From an uncultured Pseudomonas sp. (lineage in GTDB: Bacteria > Pseudomonadota > Gammaproteobacteria > Pseudomonadales > Pseudomonadaceae), in the NCBI RefSeq assembly GCF_946885885.1, contig NZ_CAMPHN010000177.1:1-8775 (forward strand): 8,775 bases of DNA. The letters run 5' to 3'. Below the pieces are notes generated by a model. That model did no database searches, was not told the DNA's origin, and saw only the letters and a program-made list of their open reading frames with translations. Position 1 is the stretch's first letter. Each line of letters opens with the position of its first letter. The position numbers and the translations under genes were made by a program. This document shows, one piece after another, positions 1-7,246 of the stretch.

Positions 1-52
1 CCTCACGGATACGCGCACCGACCTTTGCAATATTCTCTGCTATCGTGGACAT
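1..52 (-). CDS. yggS: YggS-family PLP-binding protein, N-terminal fragment (partial)
   Basis: Reading leftward from an ATG at 52-50 gives MSTIAENIAKVGARIRE, after which the gene runs off the window. This matches, as I know it, the start of the Pseudomonas YggS/PLPBP protein, a small pyridoxal-phosphate-binding homeostasis protein of the cytosol that is divergent from pilT in P. aeruginosa. Only 17 codons are visible, so no PLP-binding residue can be checked. A weak AGG lies about 3 bases upstream of the ATG on the minus strand. The call rests on the short N-terminal match plus its position next to pilT. Confidence 0.72.
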   Translation of the reverse strand, partial: MSTIAENIAKVGARIRE

Positions 53-108
53 TACCTGTGCCAGCCGCCTTAGATATCTGCGGCATTCTAACGTCATTAG
101 GGAGTCCC
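53..108. promoter_or_regulatory. Divergent yggS/pilT intergenic region, presumed promoters
   Basis: This 56-bp gap separates the yggS start from the pilT start and must hold or overlap the promoters of both. On the plus strand TAGATA at 71-76 could be a -10 with TGGACA at 46-51 as a -35, but the 19-bp spacing is long. On the minus strand TAGAAT (plus-strand 85-90) resembles a -10 but has no convincing -35. The pilT ribosome-binding site AGGGAG is at 99-104. The exact promoter positions are inferences. Confidence 0.3.
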
Positions 109-1143
109 ATGGATATCACTGAGCTGCTTGCCTTCAGCGCCAAGCAAGGCGCGTCGGACCTGCATCTCTCTGCTGGTCTGCCGCCGATGATTCGGGTCGA
201 CGGCGACGTGCGCCGGATCAACTTGCCGGCCATGGATCACAAGCAGGTGCATGCCCTGATTTACGACATCATGAACGACAAGCAGCGCAAGGATTTCGAA
301 GAATTCCTCGAGACTGACTTCTCCTTCGAAGTACCGGGCGTGGCGCGTTTCCGGGTCAACGCATTCAACCAGAACCGCGGCGCCGGTGCGGTATTCCGTA
401 CCATTCCGTCCAAGGTGCTGACCATGGAAGACCTCGGTATGGGTGAGGTGTTCCGCAAGATCACCGACGTACCGCGCGGTCTGGTGCTGGTCACGGGGCC
501 CACGGGTTCGGGTAAGTCGACCACCCTGGCGGCTATGCTCGACTACCTCAACAGCACCAAGTATCACCACATCCTGACCATCGAAGACCCGATCGAATTC
601 GTCCACGAATCGAAGAAATGCCTGGTCAACCAGCGCGAAGTGCACCGCGACACCCACGGCTTCGCCGAGGCCTTGCGCTCGGCACTGCGGGAAGACCCGG
701 ACATCATCCTGGTGGGCGAGATGCGCGACCTGGAAACCATCCGCCTGGCGCTGACCGCCGCGGAAACCGGGCACTTGGTATTCGGCACCCTGCACACCAC
801 CTCGGCGGCGAAAACCATCGACCGGGTGGTGGACGTGTTCCCCGCCGAAGAAAAATCCATGGTCCGCTCGATGCTCTCCGAATCCCTGCAGTCGGTGATC
901 TCGCAAACTCTGCTGAAAAAGACCGGGGGCGGCCGGGTGGCGGCCCACGAGATAATGATCGGCACCCCGGCGATCCGTAACCTGATCCGCGAGGACAAGG
1001 TGGCGCAGATGTACTCGGCGATCCAGACCGGTGGTTCGCTGGGCATGCAGACCCTCGACTCCTGCCTGAAAGGCCTGGTCGCCAAAGGTATCGTCAGCCG
1101 CGAAAACGCGCGCGAGAAATCCAAGAATCCGGAAAACTTCTAA
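109..1143 (+). CDS. pilT: Type IV pilus retraction ATPase PilT
   Basis: The 344-residue product is a hexameric cytoplasmic ATPase that docks at the base of the type IV pilus and drives pilin depolymerisation, giving twitching motility, surface sensing and DNA uptake. An N-terminal PAS-like region is followed by the RecA-like domain: Walker A GPTGSGKS at residues 130-137 (K136), an Asp box around ILTIEDPIEF (155-164), Walker B IILVGE ending at E204, and a His box with H222 and H229. The C-terminal motif AIRNLIRE at 288-295, diagnostic of PilT, is intact. The start at 109 is chosen because AGGGAG lies 4-9 bases upstream and MDITELLAFSAKQGASDLHL is the usual PilT N-terminus; an in-frame ATG at 25 would overlap the divergent yggS gene. 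Length and all motifs are normal. pilU follows 110 bp downstream. Confidence 0.98.
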   Translation: MDITELLAFSAKQGASDLHLSAGLPPMIRVDGDVRRINLPAMDHKQVHALIYDIMNDKQRKDFEEFLETDFSFEVPGVARFRVNAFNQNRGAGAVFRTIPSKVLTMEDLGMGEVFRKITDVPRGLVLVTGPTGSGKSTTLAAMLDYLNSTKYHHILTIEDPIEFVHESKKCLVNQREVHRDTHGFAEALRSALREDPDIILVGEMRDLETIRLALTAAETGHLVFGTLHTTSAAKTIDRVVDVFPAEEKSMVRSMLSESLQSVISQTLLKKTGGGRVAAHEIMIGTPAIRNLIREDKVAQMYSAIQTGGSLGMQTLDSCLKGLVAKGIVSRENAREKSKNPENF

Positions 1144-1148
1144 TCCGT

Positions 1149-1176
1149 TGCCGGCCGGCCGTAGGGCTGGCCGGCA
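1149..1176 (+). promoter_or_regulatory. GC-rich hairpin in the pilT-pilU gap
   Basis: A 12-bp stem (1149-1160 paired with 1165-1176, one G-U pair, all other pairs Watson-Crick) closes a GTAG tetraloop and begins 5 bases after the pilT stop codon. No T-run follows, so it is not a classical rho-independent terminator. A second, weaker stem pairs GTTGTTGG (1183-1190) with CCAGCAAC (1203-1210). Likely roles are protection of the pilT 3' end, partial attenuation before pilU, or a bounded pilT transcript with pilU served by its own promoter. Confidence 0.6.
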
Positions 1177-1253
1177 GCGCAGGTTGTTGGCGAGACACGC
1201 GCCCAGCAACTGGTCGTTGGCCAAGCGCGTGATGCTGATGGGCGAGACAACGC

Positions 1254-2399
1254 ATGGAATTCGAAAAACTGCTGCGCCTGATGGTCGAGAAGGGCGGCTC
1301 CGACCTGTTCATTACCGCCGGCGTACCGCCGTCGATGAAGGTCAACGGCAAGATCATGCCGGTCACCAAAAACCCCATGTCGCCCGAGCAAACCCGCGAG
1401 ACGGTGCACTCGGTGATGAACGAGCAGCAGCGCCGCGATTTCGCGGAAAACCACGAATGCAACTTCGCCATCAGCGCCCGCGGCGTCGGCCGTTTCCGCG
1501 TCAGCGCGTTCTACCAGCGCAACCTGGCGGGCATGGTGTTGCGGCGCATCGAGACCAATATCCCGACGCTCGACGACCTCAAGCTGCCGGAGATTCTCAA
1601 AAAACTGGCACTGACCAAGCGGGGCCTGGTGCTGTTCGTCGGTGCCACCGGTACCGGTAAATCCACCTCGTTGGCGGCGATGATCGGCTACCGCAACAAG
1701 AACAGCAGCGGCCACATCATCTCCATCGAAGACCCGATCGAATACATCCACCAGCACCAGAGCTGCATCGTTACCCAGCGCGAAGTGGGTATCGACACCG
1801 AGTCCTTCGAGGTCGCCCTGAAGAACACCCTGCGTCAGGCGCCGGACGTGATTCTGATCGGCGAGGTGCGTACCCGCGAGACCATGGACCACGCCGTGGC
1901 CTTCGCCGAAACCGGCCACCTGTGTCTGGCCACCTTGCACGCCAACAACGCCAACCAGGCGCTGGACCGGATCATCAACTTCTTCCCGGCCGACCGGCAG
2001 AACCAAGTGTGGATGGACCTGTCGCTCAACCTCAAAGCCATTGTCGCGCAGCAGTTGGTGCCGACCCCGGACGGCAAGGGGCGTCGCGCGGTGATCGAGG
2101 TATTGATCAACACCCCTTTGGCCGCCGACCTGATCCGCAAAGGCGAAGTGCACGAGCTCAAGGCGCTGATGAAACGCTCCACCGAGCAGGGCATGCAAAC
2201 CTTCGACCAGGCGCTGTACAACCTCTACAGCCAGGGCGAGATCACCTACGAGGATGCATTGCTCTACGCCGACTCGGCGAACGACCTGCGTCTGTTGATC
2301 AAGCTCGGCTCGGAAACCGACGGCGACCACTTGACCAGCATGTCCCAAGGCCTGTCGCTGGAAGTCAGCGAGGAAGATCCGGGCCGACGTTTCCGTTGA
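1254..2399 (+). CDS. pilU: Type IV pilus retraction ATPase PilU
   Basis: The 381-residue product is the PilT paralogue that cooperates with PilT in pilus retraction; in P. aeruginosa, loss of PilU abolishes twitching but leaves phage sensitivity, unlike loss of PilT. Visible motifs are Walker A GATGTGKS at 130-137, Asp box IISIEDPIEYIH at 155-166, Walker B VILIGE ending at E204, and His box with H222 and H229. Where PilT has AIRNLIRE, this protein has PLAADLIRKGE (288-298), and it carries an extra C-terminal tail of about 35 residues rich in acidic residues, both typical of PilU. The ATG at 1254 is the usual N-terminus (MEFEKLLRLMVEKGGSDLFI) but its ribosome-binding site is poor (GGGCGAG at 1240-1246). 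The sequence is intact, and a terminator follows 17 bp after the stop. Confidence 0.97.
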   Translation: MEFEKLLRLMVEKGGSDLFITAGVPPSMKVNGKIMPVTKNPMSPEQTRETVHSVMNEQQRRDFAENHECNFAISARGVGRFRVSAFYQRNLAGMVLRRIETNIPTLDDLKLPEILKKLALTKRGLVLFVGATGTGKSTSLAAMIGYRNKNSSGHIISIEDPIEYIHQHQSCIVTQREVGIDTESFEVALKNTLRQAPDVILIGEVRTRETMDHAVAFAETGHLCLATLHANNANQALDRIINFFPADRQNQVWMDLSLNLKAIVAQQLVPTPDGKGRRAVIEVLINTPLAADLIRKGEVHELKALMKRSTEQGMQTFDQALYNLYSQGEITYEDALLYADSANDLRLLIKLGSETDGDHLTSMSQGLSLEVSEEDPGRRFR

Positions 2400-2416
2400 G
2401 GTGCACGCTTTACCCG

Positions 2417-2438
2417 GCCCGCGATAGCGGGCTTTTTT
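2417..2438 (+). terminator. Rho-independent terminator after pilU
   Basis: GCCCGC at 2417-2422 pairs with GCGGGC at 2427-2432 around a GATA tetraloop, followed directly by six T residues (2433-2438). The stem, tight loop and T-run are textbook, and the position 17 bp after the pilU stop ends the pil transcript and separates it from the TM2 gene. Confidence 0.92.
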
Positions 2439-2444
2439 ATCGAA

Positions 2445-2475
2445 CGGCAAATCGTTCCGCATGTCCGATTTGCCG
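2445..2475. repeat. Perfect 10-bp inverted repeat upstream of the TM2 gene
   Basis: CGGCAAATCG at 2445-2454 is matched exactly by CGATTTGCCG at 2466-2475, separated by 11 bp. The arm centres are 21 bp apart, about two helical turns, so a dimeric or tetrameric regulator could bind both on one face of the DNA. As RNA the same bases would form a 10-bp hairpin in the TM2-gene leader. There is no T-run, and the pilU terminator just upstream is already complete, so this is a separate element. Its function is not known. Confidence 0.6.
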
Positions 2476-2526
2476 CAGCCGTGCTTAGCCGCCGCACTGA
2501 CAGTCGCACTTAACAGGAGCAAAAAC

Positions 2527-2928
2527 ATGCAGGCAAGACAGGACACCCACAGCAAAGTCATCGGTTATCTCTTGTGGATATTCGGCTTTCTCGGTGCGCA
2601 CCGCTTCTATTACGGCAAGCCGGTGACCGGCACCATCTGGTTCTTCACCTTGGGCCTGCTGTTCATCGGTTGGATCGTCGACCTGTTCCTGATCCCGGCG
2701 ATGGACCGCGAGGCCGATCTGCGTTTTACCGCGGGAGACACCGACTACAACGTCGCCTGGATACTGCTGACCTTTCTCGGCGTGTTCGGCGTGCACCGCA
2801 TGTACCAGGGCAAGTGGATCACCGGCATCCTCTACCTGCTCACCGGCGGCTTATTCCTGGTCGGCGTGCTCTACGACTTCTGGACCTTGAACGACCAGAT
2901 ATCGGTGCGCAACGCCCGCGAGTCCTAA
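2527..2928 (+). CDS. Tandem TM2-domain inner-membrane protein
   Basis: The 133-residue protein contains two copies of the TM2 module, each a pair of transmembrane helices joined by a short turn. Copy 1 has GFLGAHRFYYGKPVTG at 20-35 and copy 2 has GVFGVHRMYQGKWITG at 85-100, 65 residues apart, sharing the pattern G-x-x-G-x-H-R-x-Y-x-G-K-x-x-T-G. Four membrane segments are expected near 11-23, 36-57, 77-89 and 99-119. The linker (58-75) is hydrophilic. The start at 2527 is chosen because AGGAG at 2515-2519 sits 7 bases upstream; the in-frame ATG at 2461 lies in the loop of the inverted repeat, has no ribosome-binding site, and would add a non-conserved segment. Family function is unknown; TM2 proteins are usually small membrane proteins of unassigned role. 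The gene appears monocistronic, and I see no clear terminator after it. Confidence 0.85.
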   Translation: MQARQDTHSKVIGYLLWIFGFLGAHRFYYGKPVTGTIWFFTLGLLFIGWIVDLFLIPAMDREADLRFTAGDTDYNVAWILLTFLGVFGVHRMYQGKWITGILYLLTGGLFLVGVLYDFWTLNDQISVRNARES

Positions 2929-3077
2929 GCGCGGCCTCATTGCCTTTGCCGGGCGTTGGGGGGGCGGATGGCATGCTAAGGTTAGGACAGGTCGCTGGAC
3001 GGCTAGGCTTTTAGCACGCGCCCGCTTCCAACCGGCGAGCGGAGCGACCTTTCAGGGCCAGGCTGTTCGAGGGCTGT
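2929..3077. promoter_or_regulatory. Intergenic region upstream of the solute-binding protein gene
   Basis: These 149 bp contain no gene and no clear terminator for the TM2 gene. A weak sigma-70-like pair is TTAGGA at 2982-2987 and TAGGCT at 3004-3009 with a 16-bp spacer. GAGGG at 3069-3073 is the ribosome-binding site of the next gene. A promoter is expected here, but its location is uncertain. Confidence 0.25.
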
Positions 3078-3875
3078 ATGCGTCTATCCATGAGTATCCG
3101 CGTATCGCTGTGCTGTTTGTCGTTGTGCTTCGGGCTGGCTGTCGCCCAGGCCAGAGAGTTGGTGGTCGGCGGTATCCCGGAGACCCCGGTGCGCTATGTC
3201 GACCCGGCCGATGGTGTGATCAAGGGGCTCGACGTCGATGTGCTCGAACATATTCTGGGTCGTCTCGAGGTGCCCTACCGGATTCGTCTGGAGTCGTCTT
3301 CTGCCCGGCTGGAGAGCAACTGGCGCCAGGGTAAGCTGTACGACATGGTGTTCACCTATTCCTTCAAGGAAGAACGTACGGCCTATCTGTTGTATGCCCG
3401 TGAGGCGCATATCTACAACAACTGGCATTTTTTCGTGCTCAGGGAGAATTTGCCGCGTTTTCGCTATGACAGCCTGGACGATCTGAAAGGCTTGCGGGTC
3501 GGTGCGACCCAGGGGTTTTCCTATACCAAGGAGTTCTGGGCGGCGGTCGAGGCGGGCATCTGGCACACCGACCTGGTCACCCAGAACGAGCTGCAGATGC
3601 AGAAGCTTCTGTATGGGCGCATCGATATCGTGCCGCTGCCGGCTATGGTCACGCTCTATGGGGCTCGTCAGGGCGGTTACATCCAGCGCATCGCCTACCT
3701 GCCCAAGCCGTTGAAGAGCGATGCCTATTACAACACCTTCGTCAAAGCCTCGAACTATCCGGGCTTGCAGACCTTGGCGCAGCGCTATGACGAGGAGCTG
3801 CGGCGGATGAAGGAGGACGGCAGCTTGCGCGCCATCTACCGGAAAAACGGTCTGGAGGAGCACTACCCCTTCTAA
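3078..3875 (+). CDS. Periplasmic solute-binding protein, family 3 (amino-acid type), orphan
   Basis: The 265-residue protein has a Sec signal peptide: basic start, hydrophobic core LCCLSLCFGLAV, and a likely signal-peptidase I site after AVAQA (A25/R26). The mature part is a two-lobed solute-binding fold of the bacterial family 3 type: ELVVGGIPETPVRY opens lobe 1, KEERTAYLL (97-105) holds the arginine (R100) that in this family usually binds the ligand carboxylate, LKGLRVGATQGFSYTK (136-151) is the typical start of lobe 2, and GRIDIVPLPA (180-189) follows. At about 240 mature residues it is of ordinary size. GAGGG lies 4 bases before the ATG at 3078; a second ATG at 3090 is possible. No permease or ATPase gene is adjacent, so it may serve a distant transporter or act as a sensory ligand-binding protein. 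The ligand cannot be predicted from sequence alone. Confidence 0.85.
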   Translation: MRLSMSIRVSLCCLSLCFGLAVAQARELVVGGIPETPVRYVDPADGVIKGLDVDVLEHILGRLEVPYRIRLESSSARLESNWRQGKLYDMVFTYSFKEERTAYLLYAREAHIYNNWHFFVLRENLPRFRYDSLDDLKGLRVGATQGFSYTKEFWAAVEAGIWHTDLVTQNELQMQKLLYGRIDIVPLPAMVTLYGARQGGYIQRIAYLPKPLKSDAYYNTFVKASNYPGLQTLAQRYDEELRRMKEDGSLRAIYRKNGLEEHYPF

Positions 3876-3880
3876 ATGAG

Positions 3881-3978
3881 CGGCAAGCCATAAGCTGCAA
3901 GCGAGCGTTTGTATTGCCTGAGCCAGCCCCCGGTCTCTTACAACTTGCAGGGGGCGGCCATCCGCCTTGCAGCTTATG
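3881..3978. repeat. Heptamer foldback element 1 (solute-binding protein gene / ompR gap)
   Basis: Forward heptamers AAGCCAT, AAGCTGC and AAGCGAG at 3885-3905 are answered by reverse-complement heptamers on the right. CATAAGCTGCAAG at 3889-3901 is perfectly complementary to CTTGCAGCTTATG at 3966-3978 (13 bp), with another CTTGCAG at 3944-3950. The element starts 5 bp after the solute-binding protein stop codon and can form a long hairpin that may end or stabilise that transcript. It is the most degraded of the three related elements in the window. Confidence 0.75.
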
Positions 3979-4095
3979 ACGACAAATCTGCTAACAATGG
4001 GCTGCACGCCTGTGCTGACGGCTGAGCCATAATGCCGGCGTTGGGAAACCGCGGGCGTTCGTTGAGCGCTGCGGATCCTCGGTCAAGGAGCCCTT
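3979..4095 (+). promoter_or_regulatory. Leader and presumed promoter of ompR-envZ
   Basis: The 117 bp between heptamer element 1 and the ompR start should hold the operon promoter. CATAAT at 4028-4033 matches the sigma-70 -10 at five of six positions but lacks a good -35 at the right distance. An alternative is TTGCAG at 3967-3972, inside the heptamer element, with TAACAA at 3992-3997, but its 19-bp spacing is long. AAGGAG at 4085-4090, 5 bases before the ATG, is a strong ribosome-binding site for ompR. Confidence 0.35.
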
Positions 4096-4830
4096 ATGAA
4101 CAGCACTGCCCCCGCGCTTGAAGGCGAAAAAATTCTGGTGGTCGACGACGACGCCCGCCTGCGGCGCCTGCTCGAACGTTTCTTCGATGAACAGGGCTAC
4201 CGCGTGCGCGCCGTGGAGAACGTCGAGCAGATGGATCGCCTGCTGTCCCGCGAGCTGTTCCACCTGGTGGTGCTGGACCTGATGTTGCCGGGCGAGGACG
4301 GTTTATCCGCCTGCCGCCGCCTGCGTGCGGCGAACAATCAGGTGCCGATCATCATGCTCACCGCCAAGGGCGACGAGGCCAGCCGTATTCAGGGGCTGGA
4401 GTTGGGCGCCGACGATTACCTGGCCAAACCCTTCAACCCGCGCGAGTTGCTGGCGCGGATCAAAGCCGTATTGCGTCGGCAGGCCCCGTTGGTACCCGGC
4501 GCGCCGGGCAGCGAGGACGAAAGCGTGAGCTTCGGCGAGTACGAACTGTCGCTGGCCACCCGCGAGCTGAAGAAGGGCGACGAAGTCCATATGCTCACCA
4601 CCGGCGAATTCGCCGTGCTCAAGGCCCTGGTGCAGCATGCCCGCGAACCGCTGACCCGCGACAAGCTGATGAACCTGGCCCGCGGCCGCGAATGGGATGC
4701 GCTGGAGCGCTCCATCGACGTGCAGATTTCCCGCCTGCGCCGGCTGATCGAGCCCGACCCGTCCAAGCCGCGCTATATCCAGACGGTCTGGGGCGTGGGT
4801 TATGTGTTCGTGCCGGATGGCAATAAGTGA
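4096..4830 (+). CDS. ompR: Two-component response regulator OmpR
   Basis: The 244-residue cytoplasmic DNA-binding regulator is phosphorylated by EnvZ and controls envelope and osmotic-stress genes; in P. aeruginosa the orthologous pair is also called AmgRS and supports aminoglycoside tolerance. The receiver domain (about 11-125) has the acidic cluster D17-D19, the phospho-acceptor D61 in VVLDLMLPGEDG, T89 in IIMLTAKGDE and K111 in YLAKPFNP. A winged-helix effector domain of the OmpR/PhoB type follows (about 145-240), ending in the typical RYIQTVWGVGYVFVP. The ATG at 4096 has AAGGAG 5 bases upstream. Length and motifs are complete. envZ follows after 74 bp, an unusually large gap for a pair whose genes often overlap or nearly touch; the gap is filled by a repeat element. 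Confidence 0.97.
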   Translation: MNSTAPALEGEKILVVDDDARLRRLLERFFDEQGYRVRAVENVEQMDRLLSRELFHLVVLDLMLPGEDGLSACRRLRAANNQVPIIMLTAKGDEASRIQGLELGADDYLAKPFNPRELLARIKAVLRRQAPLVPGAPGSEDESVSFGEYELSLATRELKKGDEVHMLTTGEFAVLKALVQHAREPLTRDKLMNLARGREWDALERSIDVQISRLRRLIEPDPSKPRYIQTVWGVGYVFVPDGNK

Positions 4831-4834
4831 AGCG

Positions 4835-4905
4835 CAAGCTACAAGCCTCAAGCTACAAGTGGTTGCGCCGCCCGCTGTTTCTTGCCGCTTGAGGCTTGCC
4901 GCTTG
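4835..4905 (+). repeat. Heptamer foldback element 2 (ompR-envZ gap, spans envZ start site)
   Basis: The left arm at 4835-4859 consists of AAGCTAC, AAGCCTC, AAGCTAC plus AAG. The right arm at 4881-4905 is the reverse complement of AAGCGGC, AAGCCTC, AAGCGGC plus AAG. The arms match at 21 of 25 positions, and the central 12 bp (4842-4853 with 4887-4898) pair perfectly; the only mismatches are two 2x2 internal loops (TA opposite CC). The loop is 4860-4880. The right arm contains the envZ Shine-Dalgarno and ends on the first base of the envZ start codon. Confidence 0.88.
4891..4894 (+). promoter_or_regulatory. envZ ribosome-binding site (GAGG) sequestered in the hairpin
   Basis: GAGG at 4891-4894 lies 10 bases before the GTG at 4905 and is the only purine-rich Shine-Dalgarno match near that start. 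It comes from the central heptamer (reverse complement of AAGCCTC) and is complementary to CCTC at 4846-4849 in the left arm. Folding would therefore mask it. Ribosomes finishing ompR at 4830 would cover or nearly reach the left arm and could open the stem, which would couple envZ translation to ompR translation. The pairing is visible in the sequence; the regulation is inferred. Confidence 0.55.
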
Positions 4906-6218
4906 TGAAAACGCCTGTCTGGTTCCCGCAAAGCTTCTTCGCCCGCACCCTGTGGCTGGTGTTGATCGTGGTGCTGTTCTCCAAGGCGCTGACCCTGGTT
5001 TATCTAATGATGAACGAGGATGTGCTGGTCGATCGCCAATACAGCCACGGTGCGGCGCTGACCCTGCGCGCCTATTGGGCGGCGGATCCGGAGGACCGCG
5101 CGACCATCGCCGAGGCGGCGGGCTTGGCGCGTGTTCCACATAACGAGGTGCCGACCAGCGAACAGCATTGGCCCTACAGCGAGATATTCGAACGGCAGAT
5201 GCAAGCCGAACTCGGCCCCGGGACCGAAGTGCGGGTGCGCGCGAAGAGCCCGCCCGCGCTCTGGGTGCATGCCCCGGCTCTGGGCGACGAGTGGCTGCGA
5301 GTGCCGCTGTATCCGCACCCGCTGCGCGGCCAGCGGATCTGGAGCGTGTTGGGCTGGTTCCTGGCCATCGGCCTGCTCTCCACCGCGGCTGCCTGGATTT
5401 TCGTCAGCCAGCTCAGCGCGCCGCTCAAGCGCCTGGTGTTCGCCGCCCGGCAGATCGGCCAGGGCCGTAGCGTGCACTTGCCGGTCAGCGATACGCCGAG
5501 CGAAATGACCGAGGTTTACCGCGCGTTCAACCAGATGGCCGACGACGTCGAACAGGCCGGGCGCGAACGCGAGTTGATGCTCGCCGGGGTGTCCCACGAC
5601 CTGCGCACGCCGCTGACCCGCCTGCGCTTGTCCCTGGAGTTGCTCGGCAGCGACTCCGAGCTGACCGAGGACATGGTGCGCGATATCGAGGACATGGATG
5701 CGATTCTCGACCAGTTTCTCGCCTTTATCCGCGACGGCCGCGACGAGCCGTTGGAAACCCTCGACCTGCTCGATGTGATCCGTGAGGTGGTGGCGCCCTA
5801 CAACCAGCAGCAGACACTGGTGCGTCTGTGCCTGGAGCCGGTCCCGGCGTTTCCGTTACGCCGGGTATCGATCAAGCGGTTGTTGGTCAACCTGATCGAA
5901 AACGCCCTGCGCTATGGCGGCAACGGGGTGGAAGTGGCGGTTTCGGTATCCGGCGATTGCAGTGCGCCTTATGTGGTGCTCAGTGTGCTGGACCGTGGCA
6001 CCGGCATCGACCCGAACGAGCTGGGCAGTATCGTCAATCCGTTTATCCGCGGCGACCGCGCCCGTGGCGGCCAGGGCGCGGGGCTGGGCCTGGCCATCGT
6101 CAAGCGCATCGCCGCGCTGCACGGCGGCAGCATCGAGCTGCGCAACCGCTCCGGCGGCGGCCTGGAGGCGCGGGTGTGTCTGCCGTTGGGATTGTTGCTG
6201 CCGCGCGATGCGGTCTAG
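4905..6218 (+). CDS. envZ: Two-component sensor histidine kinase EnvZ
   Basis: The 437-residue inner-membrane kinase phosphorylates OmpR. Segments in order: TM1 at about 15-35, a periplasmic sensor region at about 36-145, TM2 at about 146-167, HAMP linker at about 168-220, dimerisation/phospho-acceptor domain with H231 in GVSHDLRTPLTR, then the ATPase domain with N box NLIENALRYG (329-338), G1 DRGTGI (363-368) and G2 GAGLGLAIVK (391-400). All catalytic motifs are intact. I chose GTG at 4905 because MKTPVWFPQSFFARTLWLVL is the usual Pseudomonas N-terminus; the in-frame TTG at 4896 leaves no room for a ribosome-binding site after GAGG. The start codon itself sits at the end of a heptamer foldback element, unlike a normal operon junction. 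The gene converges on rimK. Confidence 0.95.
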   Translation: MKTPVWFPQSFFARTLWLVLIVVLFSKALTLVYLMMNEDVLVDRQYSHGAALTLRAYWAADPEDRATIAEAAGLARVPHNEVPTSEQHWPYSEIFERQMQAELGPGTEVRVRAKSPPALWVHAPALGDEWLRVPLYPHPLRGQRIWSVLGWFLAIGLLSTAAAWIFVSQLSAPLKRLVFAARQIGQGRSVHLPVSDTPSEMTEVYRAFNQMADDVEQAGRERELMLAGVSHDLRTPLTRLRLSLELLGSDSELTEDMVRDIEDMDAILDQFLAFIRDGRDEPLETLDLLDVIREVVAPYNQQQTLVRLCLEPVPAFPLRRVSIKRLLVNLIENALRYGGNGVEVAVSVSGDCSAPYVVLSVLDRGTGIDPNELGSIVNPFIRGDRARGGQGAGLGLAIVKRIAALHGGSIELRNRSGGGLEARVCLPLGLLLPRDAV

Positions 6219-6229
6219 CAATGAGCCCT

Positions 6230-6341
6230 AAGCCTCAAGCTACAAGCTGCAAGTAAGAGCAACAGCGAAAAGGCCTCGACGCTGACGGGTCGGCCATACG
6301 CTGATTAGCTTGCAGCTTGCAGCTTGCAGCTTGCAGCTTGC
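6230..6341. repeat. Heptamer foldback element 3 (envZ/rimK convergent gap)
   Basis: The left arm has AAGCCTC, AAGCTAC, AAGCTGC plus AAG at 6230-6253. The right arm is five exact tandem copies of AGCTTGC at 6307-6341 (35 bp), the reverse complement of AAGCTGC repeats. CAAGCTGCAAG (6243-6253) can pair perfectly with several registers of CTTGCAGCTTG on the right. The last base of the array is the last base of the rimK stop codon read on the minus strand, so the array abuts the gene with no spacer. Being palindromic and lying between convergent genes, it may act as a bidirectional transcript end. No T-run is present. Confidence 0.88.
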
Positions 6342-7246
6342 TAGCCCTTACCCTTGGTGCGGGTCAGGTGCGGGCCGCCGTTTTTCTCCAGGTACTGGAT
6401 GACCAGACTGGCGACGTCCTTGCCGGTGGTGGTTTCGATGCCTTCCAGGCCGGGCGAGGAGTTGACTTCCATCACCAGCGGGCCGTGGTTCGAACGCAGG
6501 ATATCCACGCCCGCCACCGACAGGCCCATGACCTTGGCGGCGCGGATCGCGGTCATACGTTCTTCCGGGGTGATTTTGATCAAGCTGGCGCTGCCGCCGC
6601 GATGCAGGTTGGAGCGGAACTCGCCGGGTTTGGCCTGGCGTTTCATCGAGGCGATCACCTTGTCGCCGACCACGAAGCAGCGGATGTCGGCGCCGCCGGC
6701 TTCCTTGATGTATTCCTGCACCATGATGTCCTGCTTGAGGCCCATAAAGGCCTCGATCACCGACTCGGCGGCCTGTTGCGTTTCGCAGAGCACCACGCCG
6801 ATGCCCTGGGTGCCTTCCAGCACCTTGATCACCAGGGGCGCGCCGTTGACCATCTGGATCAGGTCGGGAATATCGTCCGGCGAGTGGGCGAAGCCGGTCA
6901 CCGGCAGGCCGACGCCGCGTCGCGACAACAGTTGCAGCGAACGCAGCTTGTCGCGGGAGCGGGCGATGGCCACCGATTCGTTGAGCGGGAACACCCCCAT
7001 CATCTCGAACTGGCGCAGCACCGCGCAGCCGTAGAAGGTCACCGAGGCGCCGATCCGCGGAATCACCGCGTCGAAACCTTCCAGCGGTCGCCCGCGGTAG
7101 TGGATCTGCGGCTTGTGGCTGGCGATGTTCATATAGGCGCGCAGGGTATCGATGACCACCACCTCATGGCCCCGCTGCTGCCCGGCTTCGACCAGACGGC
7201 GAGTGGAATACAGGCGCGGGTTGCGCGACAGCACGGCGATTTTCAT
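6341..7246 (-). CDS. rimK: Ribosomal protein S6--L-glutamate ligase RimK
   Basis: The 301-residue ATP-grasp enzyme adds glutamate residues to the C-terminus of ribosomal protein S6 (RpsF); in Pseudomonas this changes ribosome function and affects motility and virulence traits. An N-terminal pre-ATP-grasp domain ([20 protein letters not shown]) is followed by the ATP-grasp core: [14 protein letters not shown] (138-151) with K141, VQEYI (176-180) with E178, metal-binding acidic residues at D248 and in [13 protein letters not shown] (259-271, E260 and N262). The length is normal. The ATG overlaps the rimB stop as ATGA (7246-7243), so the two genes are probably co-transcribed and translationally coupled; its own Shine-Dalgarno is poor. 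The stop codon abuts a heptamer repeat array. Confidence 0.97.

What the first reader, a model, noticed from the sequence alone, without database searches (positions are those of the whole stretch)
4835..4905. A heptamer foldback element supplies and masks the envZ ribosome-binding site
Seen: the whole ompR-envZ gap is a foldback of AAGCNNC heptamers. The only good Shine-Dalgarno for envZ, GAGG at 4891-4894, lies in the perfectly paired 12-bp core opposite CCTC at 4846-4849, and the stem closes on the G of the GTG start. Established: ompR and envZ are usually tightly spaced and co-translated. Inference: a repeat insertion separated the two genes and became the translation-initiation region of the kinase, making EnvZ output depend on upstream ribosomes, temperature or a helicase. 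That would be a cis-acting control on the kinase:regulator ratio, which affects phosphatase/kinase balance.
Basis: partly seen in the sequence, partly recalled or inferred. Interest (0 to 1): 0.7.

Follow-up and report, generated by a model that had tools for sequence, protein, structure and literature searches.

The report
Hairpin repeat between ompR and envZ
A scattered bacterial DNA repeat that folds back on itself fills the gap between two genes of a signalling pair, supplies the start signal of the second gene and buries it in a hairpin, and relatives often fill the same gap with unlike hairpins.

Summary
The 74-nt ompR-envZ gap is a heptamer foldback (z -4.15, 0 of 200 shuffles as stable). 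GAGG 4891-4894 pairs with CCTC 4846-4849 in a 12-bp core, and the outer stem covers the whole GTG start. The heptamer pattern occurs in 254 of 298 Pseudomonas genomes; this window holds three foldbacks. Comparison changes the picture: relatives carry five unlike repeat motifs, terminator-like hairpins, short gaps or overlaps in the same place. Of 71 gaps of 30-300 nt in the nearest-relative set, 58 fold with z<-2; for phoB-phoR it is 4 of 25 or 4 of 17, by start rule. Eight distinct heptamer gaps all have a purine tetramer ending 10 nt before the start, and the window's start region is the costliest to open of 221. Best reading: an intercistronic hairpin, recruited repeatedly, that holds EnvZ below OmpR; the heptamer version also became the masked ribosome-binding site. 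Opening by temperature, or by a ribosome at the ompR stop, is not supported in silico. Function is untested, and neutral settlement of repeats remains a serious rival.

The parts
4096..4830 (+). ompR-type response regulator gene (amgR in P. aeruginosa, name recalled), stop TGA 4828-4830
   Evidence: Pfam Response_reg and Trans_reg_C
4833..4907 (+). heptamer foldback filling the gap and reaching into the envZ start codon
4835..4859 (+). left arm, CAAGCNN heptamers (nn TA, CT, TA)
4860..4880 (+). spacer/loop with a small 3-bp hairpin
4881..4905 (+). right arm, CTTGNNG heptamers
4842..4853 (+). 5' side of the 12-bp core stem; holds CCTC 4846-4849, which pairs with the SD
4887..4898 (+). 3' side of the 12-bp core stem
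4891..4894 (+). GAGG, Shine-Dalgarno-like, ends 10 nt before GTG; unpaired probability 0.00
4890..4892 (+). in-frame TGA overlapping the SD; it leaves only TTG 4896 as a possible earlier envZ start
4905..4907 (+). GTG start of envZ, aligned with the start codon of relatives, inside the outer stem
4905..6218 (+). envZ-type sensor kinase gene, 437 aa (amgS in P. aeruginosa, name recalled)
   Evidence: HAMP, HisKA, HATPase_c; up to 93% identity to relatives
3879..3976 (.). second heptamer foldback, between the solute-binding protein gene and ompR
   Evidence: z -2.16, 7 of 200 shuffles as stable
6230..6341 (.). third heptamer foldback, between convergent envZ and rimK
   Evidence: z -4.69 and -4.27 on the two strands

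Best explanation
The element is a copy of a genus-wide dispersed heptamer foldback family (CAAGCNN units facing CTTGNNG units) that came to lie between ompR and envZ. In the mRNA it should form a strong intercistronic hairpin (shown in silico). It acts at two steps (inferred). As a 3' structure behind ompR it marks the end of the well expressed part of the message. As the envZ start region it gives a strong Shine-Dalgarno while holding it in the stem, so EnvZ is made rarely. The net effect is more regulator than kinase. Many relatives may get the first effect from unlike hairpins (GTAGGAGC/REPIN-type, GGGTGGAT, GTAGGTTGGG, CCCTCTCCC, terminator-like), mostly with a weaker and more open envZ start; the heptamer lineages combine a strong SD with strong masking. 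Shown: the hairpin, its recurrence, structure conservation in one group, and the SD pattern. Inferred: the effect on protein amounts.
For: Fold z -4.15. Heptamer pattern in 254 of 298 genomes. ompR-envZ gaps of 30-300 nt in the 80 nearest loci plus the window: 58 of 71 with z<-2, against argX-argA 4 of 30, hslR-hslO 3 of 22, hslO-pckA 2 of 31, envZ-ldc 9 of 32 and phoB-phoR 4 of 25 or 4 of 17. Fewest class changes on a tree of 221 rows: 58. Inserts of one clade: 34 distinct, each predicted to fold as a hairpin; on 8 of them 96.2% of pair cells are paired, with 7 two-sided changes against 2.5 in shuffles, 0 of 500. Heptamer gaps: SD energy median -5.6 against -2.4 kcal/mol in other long gaps; opening cost median 21.3, against 8.8 and 8.9 in the two largest other classes; the window is highest of 221 at 26.9.
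Against: No expression data. Another co-directional gap, thioesterase-gshA, is also hairpin-rich (37 of 56), so repeats may settle wherever a gap is tolerated. Of the 80 loci, 9 have a gap of 17 nt or less or an overlap, so a hairpin is not required. Overlap-type starts are also costly to open (median 12.8) and some non-heptamer gaps reach 23.7. Paired changes can come from conversion between repeat copies; only 15 of 34 inserts individually beat their shuffles at p<=0.05. Part of the 58 class changes are flips of a crude motif rule inside clades. The SD pattern was noticed before it was counted, the lineages are not independent, and rank tests ignore kinship. A 10-nt SD-to-start distance is longer than usual (recalled).
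Confidence: 0.5

Rival explanations
1. Neutral settlement: repeats accumulate in this gap because low or variable EnvZ is tolerated; the hairpin and the masked SD are by-products, and the SD was selected only to keep some translation.
For: The heptamers are high-copy elsewhere; L203 has another palindrome between heptamer arms and L207 a heptamer remnant beside a GTAGGTTGGG element; thioesterase-gshA is also rich in hairpins, 37 of 56; heptamer foldbacks also lie in the phoB-phoR gap of L288 and L289. PMC3116915 (passages) holds that the known functional roles of such repeats look incidental.
Against: 142 of 188 gaps of 30-300 nt fold with z<-2 and only 4 have z>0; neutral decay should leave more hairpin-free spacers. 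Paired changes keep a hairpin in one clade. phoB-phoR in 29 of the same genomes is shorter and less structured.
Confidence: 0.3
2. Transcript boundary: the hairpin mainly ends or attenuates transcription after ompR, and envZ gets read-through.
For: 11 of 234 gaps were called hairpin plus T-run, for example L122, L126, L131; the gap's hairpin frequency resembles convergent gene ends (envZ-rimK 25 of 30, argA-gshA 7 of 7). Internal terminators set operon ratios in Clostridia (PMC9045158, abstract and outline).
Against: By simple consensus scans there is no terminator-like site in window 3800-6450, and no sigma-70-like promoter for a separate envZ transcript.
Confidence: 0.15
3. Regulated switch: the masked start opens on temperature, on coupling to ompR translation, or by a helicase.
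For: Highest opening cost of 221 loci; the hairpin starts 2 nt after the ompR stop.
Against: SD unpaired probability stays 0.000 from 20 to 42 C, and 0.00-0.03 with a ribosome at the ompR stop. Helicases were not testable.
Confidence: 0.05

Closest known systems
REP/REPIN elements (GTAG-tagged palindromes linked to RAYT transposases)
   Same: High-copy, dispersed, foldback; REPIN-like sequences occupy this same gap in relatives, and REP PF4 (GTAGGAGCCGGCTTGCTGGCGAT, PMC3686654 Table 1, passages) differs by one base, by eye, from the gaps of L007, L011, L012 and L016.
   Different: The window element is built of tandem heptamers with a variable dinucleotide, not one GTAG-tagged palindrome; a transposase link was not tested.
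malE-malF type intercistronic protective hairpin
   Same: A strong hairpin between co-directional genes whose products are needed in unequal amounts (PMC5927463, passages).
   Different: Here the hairpin also contains the downstream SD and start codon; mRNA decay was not measured.
Internal intrinsic terminators setting operon stoichiometry (PMC9045158, abstract and outline)
   Same: A stem-loop between genes of one operon; 11 of 234 relatives' gaps show a hairpin with a T-run.
   Different: The window hairpin has no T-run.
E. coli ompR-envZ
   Same: Same gene pair; OmpR about 3500 and EnvZ about 100 molecules per cell (PMC543474, passages).
   Different: Recalled, not checked here: the E. coli genes overlap and have no intergenic hairpin.

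Membership tests
REP/REPIN | high copy number and foldback form outside genes | tested here: met
   up to 425 pattern matches in a genome, 254 of 298 genomes; the three foldbacks in the window lie between genes. Extragenic placement was not checked genome-wide.
REP/REPIN | GTAG/GTGG tetranucleotide at the foot of a single palindrome | tested here: not met
   arms are heptamer tandems; GTAG on the minus strand occurs only inside CTTGTAG heptamers (read)
REP/REPIN | cognate RAYT (TnpA-REP) transposase | not tested
   no search was made
malE-type protective intercistronic hairpin | stable hairpin between co-directional genes | tested here: met
   (in silico)
malE-type protective intercistronic hairpin | upstream gene mRNA outlives downstream mRNA | not testable with these tools
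   needs RNA decay data
intrinsic terminator | GC-rich stem followed by a T-run | tested here: not met
   0 terminator-like sites in window 3800-6450 by consensus scan
RNA thermometer | RBS opens within the growth temperature range | tested here: not met
   SD unpaired 0.000 at 20-42 C in silico
overlap-coupled operon | stop and start overlap (ATGA/GTGA) | tested here: not met
   74-nt gap in the window; 30 of 234 gaps are 0 nt or less

The most novel reading that the evidence does not exclude
The ompR-envZ junction of Pseudomonas is under selection for a hairpin of any sequence: an overlap-coupled junction (inferred ancestor) was opened and then repeatedly refilled by unlike repeat families, so mobile palindromes serve as interchangeable parts that set the regulator:kinase ratio. 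In heptamer lineages the repeat's variable dinucleotide evolved into the kinase's Shine-Dalgarno inside the stem.
Probability: 0.4. Interest if true: 0.75.

Novelty: new variant of a known kind. Interest (0 to 1): 0.52.

Why it matters
Repeats of the REP kind are often treated as selfish with incidental effects. One orthologous gap inside an operon, filled again and again by unlike families and, in one clade, conserved as structure, would be a clear natural test of whether such repeats are recruited as expression controls. It would also tie a mobile repeat to the stoichiometry of a two-component system, which matters because sensor kinases are usually needed in small amounts.

Tried and rejected
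Rfam: no family at gathering score. Plasmid records: 43 matched 4700-5000; the five listed rows cover 39-45% of the query and stop at query position 121-136, so nothing like the whole gap. Thermosensor and ribosome-footprint opening: rejected in silico. Intrinsic terminator or promoter in 3800-6450: none by consensus scan. First occupancy count misplaced some ompR-envZ starts (10th percentile -1); replace it. RNAalifold on the whole gap of 19 loci of one clade gave a covariation term of only -0.31 and 3 of 29 pairs with two-sided change, because the outer arms hardly vary. Alignment A3 was not counted because its members pair in different registers. The phoB-phoR control depends on the start rule: one search takes the first possible start and cuts through the foldbacks of L288 and L289, made in checking, places 17 of 29, three of them wrongly by eye (L280, L286, L302), and gives 4 of 17 with z<-2 (3 of 14 without those). 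The solute-binding protein upstream of ompR gave no match at E<=1e-60 in 8 relatives; the tool warns that an empty answer without a positive control shows nothing.

Literature: searches. I saw titles and the starts of abstracts of the listed papers only (for example 12 of 6,206, 12 of 579); none of those described this heptamer family or repeats in the ompR-envZ gap. The library lacks most subscription journals.

Sampling: L001-L080 are the best 80 of 581 EnvZ relatives. 56 genomes were chosen because they are heptamer-rich, which inflates the heptamer share. Of 119 family genomes 117 matched and 110 of those places were used. 234 of 246 sequences (245 loci and the window) gave a gap; 12 were dropped because ompR or envZ was not found in the stretch. 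One search used 8 of the 9 inserts of 34 nt; L076 was left out because it folds in another register.

Names: argX, argA, gshA, thioesterase, tex, ldc, rimB, hslR, hslO, pckA, pilT, pilU and 'fluorescens group' are my labels from recall or from the look of the sequence; Pfam was run only on ten window proteins.

Full report
What is there. The window carries ompR (4096-4830) and envZ (4905-6218); Pfam finds Response_reg and Trans_reg_C in the first, HAMP, HisKA and HATPase_c in the second. Their 74-nt gap is one foldback of heptamers. RNA folding gives -43.7 kcal/mol, z -4.15, 0 of 200 shuffles as stable. The outer 7-bp stem pairs 4833-4839 with 4901-4907, so all of GTG is inside. An in-frame TGA at 4890-4892 leaves only TTG 4896 as an earlier start, and GTG 4905 aligns with the start codon of relatives.

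What the element is. The pattern CAAGCNNCAAGCNNCAAG occurs in 11 of 14 chosen genomes and 254 of 298 genus genomes, with up to 425 matches in one. The pattern read backwards gives 0 in most genomes and more than the pattern itself in a few (for example G012, 29 against 2). Two further foldbacks of the family lie at about 3879-3976 and 6230-6341. It is a dispersed repeat, not specific to this operon. In L288 and L289 a heptamer foldback lies in the phoB-phoR gap, but there a TAAGGAC motif, which looks like the SD, lies downstream of it.

What relatives have. Of 246 sequences 234 gave an ompR-envZ gap. Thirty are 0 nt or less, mostly -4, and 13 more are 20 nt or less. By motif the others are GTAGGAGC-like 78, other 75, hairpin plus T-run 11, heptamer 10, GGGTGGAT 9, GTAGGTTGGG 4, CCCTCTCCC 4. 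Many of the most distant relatives overlap by 4 nt (L262, L263, L266, L267, L269, L270), but not all: L256, L257 and L260 have 46-50 nt and L258 and L261 3-5 nt. An overlapping ancestor is therefore an inference. On a tree of 221 distinct rows the class changes at least 58 times, heptamer against the rest 5 times; some of the 58 are flips of the motif rule inside clades such as L156-L164. The window sits among GTAGGAGC-like and GGGTGGAT gaps (L001, L002, L007, L012, L016, L021-L023; L021 falls under 'other'). L203 shows heptamer arms with another palindrome between them, and L207 a heptamer remnant next to a GTAGGTTGGG element, which suggests nesting as one way of replacement.

Is the hairpin more than chance. 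Of 188 gaps of 30-300 nt, 142 have z<-2, 169 z<-1 and 4 z>0. In the nearest 80 loci plus the window, 58 of 71 have z<-2. Controls from the same loci, 30-300 nt: argX-argA 4 of 30, hslR-hslO 3 of 22, hslO-pckA 2 of 31, envZ-ldc 9 of 32; divergent rimB-hslR 0 of 54 and tex-ompR 8 of 76. Against a simple contrast: co-directional thioesterase-gshA 37 of 56, tex-thioesterase 1 of 2; convergent ldc-rimK 11 of 20, envZ-rimK 25 of 30, argA-gshA 7 of 7. phoB-phoR, another regulator-kinase pair, was read in 29 of 30 genomes: with the first possible start, 4 of 25 gaps of 30 nt or more have z<-2, median gap 38 nt; with a start placed by a motif, 4 of 17. So ompR-envZ resembles gene ends more than it resembles most of these co-directional gaps.

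Structure conservation. In one clade (records of P. syringae, P. brassicacearum, P. frederiksbergensis and others) 36 loci gave 34 distinct inserts between the same anchors, each predicted to fold as a hairpin, though not all in the same form. The mean longest stem is 7.44 against 5.54 in shuffles; 15 of 34 reach p<=0.05 singly. For eight inserts of 34 nt, 96.2% of pair cells are paired against 31-43% in slid controls, with 7 two-sided changes against 2.5 in shuffles, 0 of 500. The number of pairs with two-sided change (3) was reached by 65 of 500 shuffles, and further pair types (8) by 499 of 500. Conversion between repeat copies could also give this.

The envZ start. In all eight distinct heptamer gaps (window, L015, L017, L044, L182, L115, L117, L203) a purine tetramer ends exactly 10 nt before the start. 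Five lie in strict CTTGnnGCTTG units; in L017, L115 and L117 the unit is degenerate. Outside this gap, in the loci then held, 13 of 132 strict units are SD-like. SD energy is -4.7 or stronger in 8 of 8 heptamer gaps, 13 of 170 other long gaps and 20 of 30 overlaps. Opening the start region costs a median 21.3 kcal/mol in heptamer gaps, 8.8 and 8.9 in the two largest other classes and 12.8 in overlaps; the window is highest of 221 at 26.9. By start-codon closure alone the window is only 44th of 221, by closure of -15 to -1 it is 5th. The SD's unpaired probability is 0.00 in the window, 0.01 in L015, 0.04 in L117 and 0.16-0.50 in the other five, so full masking is not general to heptamer gaps.

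How it probably works. A hairpin behind ompR protects or ends the ompR message, and envZ is translated rarely. Known parallels are the malE-malF hairpin (PMC5927463, passages) and internal terminators of ABC operons (PMC9045158, abstract and outline). In E. coli OmpR and EnvZ stand at about 3500 and 100 molecules (PMC543474, passages). The effect in Pseudomonas is inferred. No promoter or terminator consensus was found around the window gap; the SD does not open in silico between 20 and 42 C or with a ribosome at the ompR stop.

Known or new. REPINs and GTAG repeats are known (PMC3116915, PMC3733652, PMC3686654, passages). I saw no description of this heptamer family or of the repeated filling of this gap in the papers listed by searches. 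The kind, an intercistronic repeat hairpin, is known; the variant, unlike families at one site plus an SD evolved inside a repeat, appears new.

Noticed in passing
window 1-4095: Two T2SSE ATPase genes (pilT/pilU-like), a TM2 gene and a solute-binding protein gene stand upstream of ompR; none of the four was found in the 80 related loci, which have other genes there. The heptamer foldback 3879-3976 lies between the last of them and ompR.
   Followed up: partly
window 6230-6341: Long heptamer foldback with four tandem CTTGCAG units between convergent envZ and rimK.
   Followed up: partly
L288 and L289: Heptamer foldback in the phoB-phoR gap, with a TAAGGAC motif left downstream of it.
   Followed up: partly
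L203, L207: Different repeat motifs combined in one ompR-envZ gap: heptamer arms around another palindrome, and a heptamer remnant beside a GTAGGTTGGG element.
   Followed up: no
L229, L230, L233, L237: ompR-envZ gaps of 200-257 nt with CCCTCTCCC/GGGAGAGGG palindromes.
   Followed up: no
L004, L181: Gaps of about 430 nt that may encode a small protein between ompR and envZ; not checked.
   Followed up: no
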